Positions 18,176 through 48,464 of a stretch of DNA of 64,000 bases are shown one piece after another. This DNA is from Bacteroidota bacterium (lineage in GTDB: Bacteria; Bacteroidota; Bacteroidia; 2-12-FULL-35-15): contig JAFLBF010000003.1 of the NCBI GenBank assembly GCA_017303895.1, positions 1-64,000 of the forward strand. Reading direction: 5' to 3'. The notes under the pieces were generated by a model. That model was given only the letters and a program-made list of their open reading frames with translations, made no database searches and was not told where the DNA came from. A program made the position numbers and the translations under genes. Every line of letters begins with the position of its first letter. The stretch's first letter is position 1.

Positions 18176-18248
18176 GCCGAAGTAGCTCAGCTGGTAGAGC
18201 AGCTGATTTGTAATCAGCTGGTCGGGGGTTCGAGTCCCTTCTTCGGCT
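18176..18248 (+). tRNA. tRNA-Thr (anticodon TGT)
   Basis: A 73-nt cloverleaf with acceptor GCCGAAG/CTTCGGC and anticodon stem GCTGA/TCAGC. The loop TTTGTAA carries TGT at 18209-18211, and the T-loop is TTCGAGT. CCA is not encoded. It is first in a Thr-Tyr-Gly-Thr array before tuf, the same order as E. coli thrU-tyrU-glyT-thrT-tufB. Confidence 0.97.
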
Positions 18249-18267
18249 CTTTTTGTAACACATTGTT

Positions 18268-18349
18268 GGGTCAGTACCAGAGTGGCCAAATGGGGCAGAC
18301 TGTAAATCTGCTGACTTCGTCTTCGGTGGTTCGAATCCATCCTGGCCCA
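18268..18349 (+). tRNA. tRNA-Tyr (anticodon GTA)
   Basis: An 82-nt class II tRNA with acceptor GGGTCAG/CTGGCCC (one G-U). The anticodon stem is GCAGA/TCTGC, with GTA at 18302-18304. It has a long variable arm and discriminator A. Confidence 0.97.
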
Positions 18350-18390
18350 CGATTTTTGATTGTAGTTCTTTTTTTGTAAGAATAATTTAA

Positions 18391-18463
18391 GCGGAAGTAG
18401 CTCATTTGGTAGAGCGTCAGCCTTCCAAGCTGAGGGTGGCCGGTTCGAGCCCGGTCTTCCGCT
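18391..18463 (+). tRNA. tRNA-Gly (anticodon TCC)
   Basis: A 73-nt cloverleaf with acceptor GCGGAAG/CTTCCGC. Anticodon stem TCAGC/GCTGA holds loop CTTCCAA with TCC at 18424-18426. Discriminator is T. Confidence 0.97.
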
Positions 18464-18489
18464 CTTTTATACTCACTTGCTTACATTAA

Positions 18490-18561
<72 letters not shown>

Positions 18562-18602
18562 CTTAATGTTGTTTTGATGGTGTGTGTTTGAAAAAAGTAT
18601 TG

Positions 18603-18639
18603 TTATTTGAATAAACCTGGAGAAGGATTATTCAAATAA
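18603..18639 (+). promoter_or_regulatory. tuf leader hairpin
   Basis: A perfect 12-bp inverted repeat (TTATTTGAATAA at 18603-18614 with TTATTCAAATAA at 18628-18639) holds a 13-nt purine-rich loop containing GGAGAAGGA and is followed by five T. It lies 64 nt before the tuf start. It may be an RNA processing or attenuation site between the tRNAs and tuf. Confidence 0.6.
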
Positions 18640-18702
18640 TTTTTGGAAAGAAAATTTCTTGAGTAAATAAATATAAAATAACAATTAAACAAATAAATAG
18701 CA

Positions 18703-19890
18703 ATGGCTAAAGAAAAATTCGACCGTTCCAAACCACACGTAAACATCGGAACAATTGGTCACGTTGACCACGGTAAAACAACCTTAACTGCAGCAATCAC
18801 AACTGTATTAGCTGAAAAAGGTCTATCTGAAGTGAGAGATTTCTCTTCAATCGATAACGCTCCTGAAGAAAAAGAGCGTGGTATCACAATCAATACTTCT
18901 CACGTAGAGTATCAAACTGCGAACCGTCACTACGCACACGTTGACTGTCCAGGTCACGCGGATTACGTAAAGAACATGGTAACTGGTGCTGCTCAGATGG
19001 ACGGTGCAATCTTGGTTGTTGCTGCTACTGATGGTCCAATGCCACAAACTCGTGAGCATATCCTTTTAGCTCGTCAGGTAGGTGTACCTAAAATCGTTGT
19101 GTTCATGAACAAAGTGGACATGGTTGACGATCCTGAATTGTTAGACTTAGTAGAAATGGAAATCCGTGAGTTATTGTCATTCTATCAATTTGATGGTGAC
19201 AACACTCCAATCATCAAAGGTTCTGCTTTAGGTGGTTTAAATAAAGATCCAAAATGGTCAGAAAAGATCATGGAATTAATGGATGCTGTAGATACTTTCA
19301 TTCCATTGCCTCCACGTGATACTGAAAAAGCATTCTTGATGCCAGTTGAGGACGTGTTCACGATCACTGGTCGTGGTACAGTTGCAACAGGTCGTATCGA
19401 AACAGGTGTTATTAACACAGGTGATGAGGTTGAGATCATCGGTATGCAAGATGAAAAATTAAAATCTACAATCACAGGTGTGGAAATGTTCCGTAAGATC
19501 CTTGACAGAGGTGAAGCTGGTGATAACGTTGGTCTATTGTTACGTGGTATCGATAAGAAAGATATCCGTAGAGGTATGGTTATCGTTAAACCGGGAACTA
19601 TCACTCCTCATACTGAGTTCAAAGCTGAGATCTACGTATTGAAAAAAGAAGAAGGTGGACGTCACACTCCATTCCATAACAAATACCGTCCTCAATTCTA
19701 CTTACGTACAACTGACGTAACTGGAGAAATTGAATTACCAGCAGGACGCGACATGGTTATGCCTGGTGATAACGTAACAATTACTGTTAAGTTGATCGTA
19801 CCGGTAGCTATGGACAAAGGTTTACGTTTCGCTATCCGCGAAGGTGGACGTACTGTAGGTGCAGGTCAGGTAACTGAAATCATCAAGTAA
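18703..19890 (+). CDS. tuf: Translation elongation factor EF-Tu
   Basis: 395 residues, full length. The G-domain motifs are GHVDHGKT (19-26), the switch I '[14 protein letters not shown]', DCPGHADY and NKVD, followed by the two beta-barrel domains. The C-terminal '[24 protein letters not shown]' is intact. EF-Tu delivers aminoacyl-tRNA to the ribosome. The gene sits between four tRNA genes and tRNA-Trp/secE. It is the only tuf gene in the window. Confidence 0.99.
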
Positions 19891-19902
19891 TAAATACAAC
19901 AA

Positions 19903-19953
19903 TTTAGTATGGACAGTAGGCAGTGGAAACATTGCCTGCTGTTTTCTACTAAA
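19903..19953 (+). promoter_or_regulatory. Stem-loop between tuf and tRNA-Trp
   Basis: TTTAGTA/TACTAAA (19903-19909 with 19947-19953) and CAGTAGGCA/TGCCTGCTG (19914-19922 with 19933-19941, one G-U) form a two-part hairpin. There is no T run, so processing or mRNA stabilisation is more likely than termination. Confidence 0.6.
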
Positions 19954-20003
19954 TACGGGTGATGCCAAAATTGATTTTTTGGATCAACAATTTGGAGTAA
20001 TAA

Positions 20004-20074
20004 ACAGGTGTAGTTCAAGGGTAGAATAGAGGTCTCCAAAACCTTTGATGGGAGTTCGAATCTCTCCACCTGTG
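20004..20074 (+). tRNA. tRNA-Trp (anticodon CCA)
   Basis: A 71-nt cloverleaf with perfect acceptor ACAGGTG/CACCTGT and anticodon loop CTCCAAA with CCA at 20036-20038. The T-loop is TTCGAAT and discriminator G (the tryptophan identity base). It lies between tuf and secE. Confidence 0.97.
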
Positions 20075-20080
20075 CTAAAG

Positions 20081-47187: not shown

Positions 47188-47351
47188 CACATAATAAACC
47201 AATAAACCACTATTTATTATTTCCCAATGTTTAAAGGCTTTTGAGCTGGGTTTTTGATTTATGGATTTTTTGTATAAATTTATATCTATGTATTATCGAA
47301 GGTTTTCTCTCCGAAAAAGCGGAAAACATGGAAATATAAAACAGAAATAAA

Positions 47352-47579
47352 TGGTTCGATCGCAACTGGGCCCACCATAATGCGAACGATAACCGCGTCT
47401 TTAAAGAAAATACTACAGATAATACAAGTGAATATTATTTACAGGATTTTGCAGGTAGAACTCTTGGAATTTATGATTTTGGAAGTGCCAGTTGGACAAG
47501 ACTAAAAATGTCCAAAATCAAAACGCCCACCTTGACGCCCACCAAAAACAAAAAAACCTTGATAATCAAGGGGTTTTGA
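47352..47579 (+). pseudogene. RHS/YD-repeat gene fragment
   Basis: A 75-codon open stretch without a proper start reads, in part, NDNRVFKENTTDNTSEYYLQ then DFAGRTLGIYDFGSASWT (to about 47498). This resembles the core of RHS/YD-repeat proteins, where a 'NRV.K...YYLRD..G..LA.YD' pattern precedes the hypervariable toxin or surface domain. Codons after 47498 (KTPTLTPTKNKK) come from the joined repeat region. A stop (47337-47339) lies just upstream. It is a relic, not an expressed gene. Confidence 0.6.
47523..47543 (-). repeat. Two 9-bp direct repeats beside the tRNA relic
   Basis: ACGCCCACC at 47523-47531 and 47535-47543 (GGTGGGCGT on the minus strand), period 12. They lie just beyond the tRNA terminator, where integrative elements often carry arm-type integrase sites. 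Confidence 0.5.
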
Positions 47580-47605
47580 AAATTTCAGCGGTCCGGACGG
47601 GACTC
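47549..47605 (-). pseudogene. 3' end of a tRNA-Asp gene with its terminator (att-site relic)
   Basis: On the minus strand 47605-47588 reads GAGTCCCGTCCGGACCGC: the end of a T-loop, the T-stem strand, acceptor strand CCGGACC, discriminator G (the aspartate identity base) and C. About 16 nt later comes a terminator, CCTTGA-TTA-TCAAGG plus seven T (47571-47550). The 5' part of the tRNA is absent. Such 3' ends are left where elements integrate into tRNA genes. Confidence 0.6.
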
Positions 47606-47672
47606 TAATAAATTTACAATTTCTTTTCTATCCATTTCCTTTACCGGTTTTCCGCTTTTTCGGAGAGAAAAC

Positions 47673-47709
47673 CTTCGGTGTACCGAAGTTTAAAAGTATG
47701 AAATACTTT
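47673..47709. repeat. Two small hairpins right of the element scar
   Basis: CTTCGGT/ACCGAAG (47673-47679 with 47682-47688) and AAAGTAT/ATACTTT (47693-47699 with 47703-47709). The first overlaps the end of the right inverted repeat. Confidence 0.45.
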
Positions 47710-48143: not shown

Positions 48144-48235
48144 GTTTTAAATGTTTGGGTTATACATTACAATATTAACTAATTTGTTATGTAATAAACA
48201 AGTATTAAGCCAAAAGGTTTTTAACAATACCTACG

Positions 48236-48464
48236 AATTTCGGATCTGCGAATTACGAATGGTACAGCGAATTACGAATCTACGAATTACGAATCCAAAC
48301 GAATGTACGAATGGTTGGGTTTGTTGAAAGGTTGGAAGGTCGGAAAGTTGGAAGGTTATTTTGTTGTTGCTTGGAATTTTATTTCTTAATTCCCCAATAC
48401 CCAAATCCCCAATACCCAAATCCTTCATTATCTCATTAGCAAATTATCTCATCAGCTAATTATC
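48236..48464. repeat. Low-complexity word repeats between apaG and the T9SS plug gene
   Basis: The 319-bp gap 48144-48462 holds no gene. It contains CGAATTACGAAT words (48236-48303), a perfect 2 x 15-bp tandem CCCCAATACCCAAAT (48392-48406 and 48407-48421) and ATTATCTCATYAGC words (48427-48464). Related ATTCGTAA words are at 1825-1860. An open frame over these repeats on the minus strand is artefactual. Confidence 0.7.

What the first reader, a model, noticed from the sequence alone, without database searches (positions are those of the whole stretch)
47297..47677. Perfect 31-bp terminal inverted repeats around a 381-bp patchwork
The arms 47297-47327 and 47647-47677 are identical inverted copies, and the identity stops sharply at both ends. 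The contents differ in origin: an RHS-like fragment, a tRNA-Asp 3' end, a tRNA terminator and direct repeats. No transposase is present. A non-autonomous transposable unit, or the inverted ends left by recombination between two copies of one element, would explain it. A 31-bp match cannot be chance.
Basis: seen in the sequence. Interest (0 to 1): 0.6.

Follow-up and report, generated by a model that had tools for sequence, protein, structure and literature searches.

The report
Orphan arms of a recombinase-linked cargo module
The 381-bp segment is a decayed copy, without its recombinase gene, of a recurring bacterial DNA module in which an IS3-like recombinase gene sits next to two inverted hairpin "arms", each facing the tail end of a tRNA gene and enclosing swappable cargo; the arrangement recurs across many Bacteroidia and I found no description of it.

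Summary
In detail: the 31-bp arms at 47297-47327 and 47647-47677 are the only inverted 31-mer pair in the window. The listed contents hold too, except that the RHS assignment is weak.

The arms belong to a 40-bp motif: a covarying 16-bp palindrome, a T-run and TTCAGAAAAAsCGGAAA. I examined 40 copies in this genus and other Bacteroidia. In all 10 close relatives of a mostly single-copy IS3-like DDE recombinase, including the one in this genome, the motif (or its start) follows the stop codon. Inverted pairs enclosing 0.24-11.5 kb occur in seven genomes, window included.

Inside the arms lies the 3' end of a tRNA gene, different at the two arms: a T-loop consensus follows 18 of 40 motifs (0.3 expected; controls 0-1). 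Two sister genomes match up to that tRNA end, then differ. Nearby cargo includes RHS, toxin-antitoxin and integrase fragments.

The window copy has lost the recombinase gene and half of one palindrome. The mechanism, including why tRNA ends are used, is unproven.

The parts
47286..47325 (+). Left arm, copy of the 40-bp motif; outer half of its palindrome lost (CTATGTATTATCGAAGG instead of CTTCGGTACACCGAAGG)
   Evidence: covariance model R1, E 6e-8; weight-matrix score 40
47297..47327 (+). Left 31-bp arm of the perfect inverted repeat
   Evidence: 97% over 36 nt to the arm beside the recombinase gene on contig C20
47352..47495 (+). Open frame fragment, RHS-like (WFDRNWAHHNANDNRVFKENTTDNTSEYYLQDFAGRTLGIYDFGSASW)
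   Evidence: weak: best E 0.0038 in fetched ORFs, no NCBIfam hit, no plasmid hit
47523..47543 (.). Two direct repeats ACGCCCACC, 12 bp apart; resemble arm sites of integrative elements (resemblance only)
   Evidence: sequence; similar GGTGTGCG repeats behind the motif in L203
47550..47578 (-). Terminator-like hairpin with T-run, read on the minus strand after the tRNA end
   Evidence: sequence; a comparable hairpin follows the intact tRNA-Asp of a congener
47588..47605 (-). 3' end of a tRNA-Asp gene (T-loop region to 3' end), facing inward from the right arm
   Evidence: blastn to tRNA-Asp positions 58-75/75, 94%
47647..47677 (-). Right 31-bp arm of the perfect inverted repeat
   Evidence: 97% over 39 nt to the C20 arm
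47649..47688 (-). Right arm, complete 40-bp motif with intact 16-bp palindrome (47673-47688)
   Evidence: covariance model R1, E 8.7e-16; palindrome covaries in relatives

Best explanation
The segment is a decayed, recombinase-less copy of a two-armed module. Shown: in intact copies an IS3-like DDE recombinase gene is followed by arm B, a variable interior and an inverted arm A. Each arm is a covarying 16-bp palindrome, a T-run and TTCAGAAAAAsCGGAAA; 20-60 bp further inward usually lies the 3' end of a tRNA gene (often its last 22-24 nt, from the T-loop), a different tRNA at each arm. Inferred: the arms are the recombinase's recognition sites; the interior is cargo exchanged at the tRNA-end junctions; palindrome plus T-run insulates the interior from flanking genes. 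In the window the recombinase gene and half of the left palindrome have been lost, leaving two arms around scraps of two earlier cargoes: an RHS-like fragment, and a tRNA-Asp end with its flank. The step that brings tRNA ends there is not shown. My preferred reading is that they are attachment-type blocks of tRNA-targeting integrative elements.
For: The arm recurs beside the only close recombinase copy of the genome (C20), 97% over 36-39 nt. The motif, or its start, lies 25-110 bp after the recombinase stop in all 10 close relatives with an intact 3' end. Inverted pairs in the window, G003, G035, G168, G329, G177 and G078. Palindrome: 5 of 6 pairs with changes on both sides, 23 cells, 0/500 shuffles. 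tRNA 3' ends: 18/40 sites against 0.33 expected, controls 0-1; matches run to the tRNA 3' end, no 5' halves near the arms. G206 and G177 are 96% identical up to the tRNA 3' end and then differ. Integrase fragments directly behind the tRNA end in L101 and L091. RHS, AbiE, HipA and caspase-domain genes nearby. D, D, E invariant in the recombinase.
Against: No target-site duplication; no conserved left end upstream of the recombinase gene; no second copy of the tRNA block at the far side of the cargo, as integrase-mediated insertion would leave. The two arms carry different tRNAs, so one integration event cannot explain a module. Many arms are single and sit behind ordinary genes. Some arms lack a tRNA end (L093, L096, L097, L099, C8, C27). 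No activity has been shown.
Confidence: 0.5

Rival explanations
1. A conventional IS whose right end carries the palindrome and whose preferred target is the T-loop region of tRNA genes. The tRNA 3' ends inside the arms are then target DNA; inverted arm pairs are remnants of two insertions, and the window is what is left of two right ends.
For: tRNA matches often begin at the same tRNA position (51-52 in Glu and Phe); the tRNA end is followed by terminator-like hairpins as behind real tRNA genes in the window, L092, G329 and G282; recombinase is IS3-like.
Against: No tRNA 5' half on the other side of any copy; no conserved left end; single arms stop at the palindrome, not at random points; some tRNA segments start at the anticodon or D region (L088, L091, L094, by inspection).
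Confidence: 0.2
2. The arms are transcription terminators or another regulatory repeat spread with mobile DNA, and the recombinase is only a passenger that happens to end with such a terminator.
For: Palindrome followed by T-run; most copies 7-120 bp behind a stop codon of a gene reading towards them; compensatory changes.
Against: 24 conserved bases after the T-run and the tRNA ends have no role in termination; the recombinase linkage holds in all 10 close relatives; inverted pairs and cargo switching at the tRNA end.
Confidence: 0.15
3. The window unit is an ordinary MITE-like non-autonomous transposon with 31-bp terminal repeats, mobilised as one 381-bp piece by the C20 recombinase.
For: Perfect inverted ends, no transposase inside, related recombinase-bearing copy in the genome.
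Against: The 381-bp interior occurs only once in the genome; no target duplication; in relatives the recombinase lies outside the arms; the palindromes extend beyond the 31 bp.
Confidence: 0.1

Closest known systems
IS3 / IS481 family insertion sequences
   Same: rve and rve_3 domains; NCBIfam IS3 model matched along residues 27-387; invariant D, D, E
   Different: Score 95-99 bits, below the curated IS3 cut-off of 160; single ORF, 38 residues between second D and E, C-terminal CxxC cluster, no terminal repeats found around the gene, usually one copy per genome
Integrons (integrase, attI, cassettes with attC hairpins)
   Same: Recombinase gene beside a fixed site, changing cargo, palindromic sites
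   Different: DDE, not tyrosine recombinase; two inverted sites, not an array of direct ones; tRNA ends at the junctions (integron features from general knowledge)
MITEs and mobile insertion cassettes
   Same: Inverted arms around DNA without a transposase, related recombinase-bearing copy in the genome
   Different: Recombinase lies outside the arms in the intact form; arms often single; no target duplication found
tRNA-targeting tyrosine-integrase islands
   Same: tRNA segment reaching from the T-loop or anticodon region to the 3' end, as in attachment sites (general knowledge)
   Different: No repeat of the block at the other end; different tRNAs at the two arms; integrase fragments at only two sites

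Membership tests
IS3 family | DDE (rve) transposase related to IS3 OrfB | tested here: inconclusive
   rve 42.9 bits, above cut-off; IS3 model 95-99 bits, below the cut-off of 160; D, D, E conserved but 38 apart
IS3 family | Two overlapping ORFs joined by frameshifting | tested here: not met
   One continuous ORF with its own start in the intact copies
IS3 family | Terminal inverted repeats around the transposase gene and short target duplications | tested here: not met
   No conserved left end or matching repeat upstream of the gene, by inspection; no duplication seen
MITE / mobile insertion cassette | Inverted ends related to those of a recombinase-bearing element | tested here: met
   97% over 36-39 nt to the arm beside the recombinase gene on C20
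MITE / mobile insertion cassette | Target-site duplication and empty sites | tested here: inconclusive
   No duplication in the window flanks; apaG-cspA not syntenic in relatives; arsC-fumC empty in G003 but boundaries not resolvable
Integron | Tyrosine recombinase IntI beside attI | tested here: not met
   The linked recombinase is a DDE protein
tRNA-targeting integrative element | Repeat of the tRNA 3' block at both ends of the inserted DNA | tested here: not met
   No second copy of the block in the fetched loci; loci are short and some contigs end early
tRNA-targeting integrative element | Tyrosine integrase gene next to the tRNA end | tested here: inconclusive
   Fragments only, in L101 (Arm-DNA-bind_5) and L091 (Phage_integrase)

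The most novel reading that the evidence does not exclude
A cargo-capture system of a kind not described before: a DDE recombinase with two inverted palindromic arms uses tRNA 3' ends as the junctions at which RHS, toxin-antitoxin and other cargo is captured and exchanged, an integron-like role played by a DDE enzyme.
Probability: 0.25. Interest if true: 0.85.

Novelty: new variant of a known kind. Interest (0 to 1): 0.6.

Why it matters
If the arms are working recombination sites, Bacteroidia possess a widespread platform that loads toxin and defence cargo between two palindromic sites, run by a DDE recombinase and with tRNA 3' ends marking the cargo edges. That could explain how orphan RHS tips and toxin-antitoxin genes come to lie behind ordinary genes, and it gives a searchable signature for such insertions.

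Tried and rejected
Rejected: chance. Arm confined to this locus. A dif-like single site (several copies per genome). Rfam families: no credible hit at the arms. Phage or plasmid origin of the segment (one 32-bp match only). Exact-pattern scans of genome contigs and viral contigs found nothing, nor did recombinase searches of viral contigs and phages. No empty site for the window. No recombinase remnant near the window. Literature searches returned nothing relevant, in an open-access library only. The family and order searches reached only the genus. The Leptospira plasmid relative (30%) lies beside an RHS gene, but I saw no clear arm in the sequence read. I first took many tRNA segments to begin exactly at the T-loop; since tRNAs differ between species, the left boundary is less sure than the right one.

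Full report
Observation. The two 31-bp arms are real and exactly inverted, and no other inverted 31-mer pair exists in the window. Between them lie a weakly supported RHS-like coding fragment, two ACGCCCACC direct repeats, a terminator-like hairpin and the 3' end of a tRNA-Asp gene. Outside are apaG with its own terminator on the right and cspA on the left.

Same genome. The arm occurs once more, almost unchanged, on contig C20, 27 bp behind the stop codon of an intact rve protein of about 430 aa (97% over 36-39 nt). Diverged copies lie on C8 and twice on C27. Aligning these showed that the repeat is part of a 40-bp motif, roughly CTTCGGTACACCGAAGTTTTNCTTTCAGAAAAASCGGAAA, which begins with a palindrome. 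In the window the right copy is complete and the left copy has lost the outer half of its palindrome.

Relatives. A pattern search and a covariance model (R1) found about 30 strong copies in roughly 10 of 36 congeneric genomes. The palindrome is kept by compensatory changes: 5 of 6 pairs changed on both sides, 23 cells, none of 500 shuffles as high, and slid controls collapse. A symmetric protein-binding site would look the same, so this does not prove an RNA or DNA hairpin. Many copies sit 7-120 bp behind the stop codon of an unrelated gene reading towards them, for example recJ, an ftsE-like gene, aspartokinase and arsC (names by my reading of the sequences). At the prfB-arsC-fumC locus the interval is 46 bp in G003 and about 116 bp in others, but filled in G008, G026 and G035.

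Recombinase. The family was found in 21 of 395 Bacteroidia genomes, 16 genera, nearly always once per genome. In all 10 close relatives whose gene end is intact, the motif, or its first bases where the contig stops (L195), follows the gene on the same strand. The protein scores below the IS3 cut-off (95-99 against 160 bits), is a single ORF, and keeps D, D, E with 38 residues between the last two and a C-terminal CxxC cluster. Two distant members (about 31%) have another hairpin and again a tRNA 3' end after it.

Architecture. In G003, G035, G168, G329, G177 and G078 a second, inverted motif faces the first, enclosing from about 0.24 kb (G177) to 11.5 kb (G035). The order is recombinase, arm B, interior, inverted arm A. 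The window pair has the same geometry without the recombinase gene, and no remnant of that gene lies within about 1 kb.

tRNA ends. Inside the arms, typically 20-60 bp from the motif, lies the 3' end of a tRNA gene. A T-loop consensus occurs within 120 nt downstream on the same strand at 18 of 40 motifs, against 0.33 expected from the same DNA and 0 or 1 in the control intervals; a stricter T-arm test gives 8 of 41 against 0.14. Matches to intact tRNAs cover Glu 51-73/73 three times and 52-73/73 once, Phe 51-74/74, Ser 61-88/88 and 64-86/86, Asp 58-75/75 (window), and Asp 59-75/75 reversed at one arm of G329; no 5' halves lie near the arms. Where both arms of a module could be assigned they carry different tRNAs. 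The sister genomes G206 and G177 are 96% identical through recombinase, arm and tRNA-Glu end, then differ: G206 continues into RHS-like coding sequence (my reading of the translation), G177 into 85 bp, another tRNA end and arm A.

Cargo. RHS core domains (L088, L091, and C27 below the cut-off), HipA, AbiEi/AbiEii, a caspase-domain protein, and integrase fragments directly behind the tRNA end (L101 Arm-DNA-bind_5, L091 Phage_integrase) were identified near the arms. This is a description, not an enrichment test.

Mechanism. Shown are linkage, inverted geometry, conservation of the palindrome, and tRNA-end junctions with changing interiors. That the recombinase acts on the arms is inferred. How the tRNA ends arrive is open. 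Attachment blocks of tRNA-targeting islands fit the extent of the segments and the integrase remnants, but the expected repeat at the far side is missing and the two arms differ. Insertion of an IS into tRNA genes fits the recurrent start position and the terminator-like flanks, but the 5' halves are missing. No target duplications were found.

Limits. The literature library holds open-access papers only, so absence there is weak evidence of novelty.

Noticed in passing
window 18176-20075 and loci listed: All 21 tRNA genes found in this group end, as predicted by ARAGORN, with exactly one encoded C after the discriminator base and then unrelated sequence; this may partly reflect how the program reports gene ends.
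   Followed up: no
L090, L103, L105, L106 (one congener, G023): Four arm copies in one genome share similarity for about 80 bp upstream of the palindrome too; in some it ends reading frames with a related C-terminal peptide (like FYPTGSIYRTF).
   Followed up: no
L095, L097, L098, L149 (arsC-fumC interval): The prfB-arsC-fumC interval is an insertion hotspot in this genus: nearly empty in some species, up to 11.5 kb between inverted arms in another.
   Followed up: partly
L094, L095, L097, L186: Short 5' fragments of the recombinase gene (about the first 16-50 codons) survive without the rest, in three cases near a single arm, as if the gene interior had been deleted.
   Followed up: partly
L038 8802-12643 (contig C8 of the same genome): A caspase-domain protein and an unassigned 265-aa protein lie downstream of a single arm.
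   Followed up: partly
window 48234-48294 and 48323-48354: Short tandem-like intergenic repeats (CGAATTACGAAT..., GTTGGAAGGT...) beside the apaG gene.
   Followed up: no
L233 (Leptospira mayottensis plasmid NZ_CP024873.1): A 30% identical recombinase homologue, without a listed gene in the plasmid table, lies beside a convergent RHS gene.
   Followed up: partly
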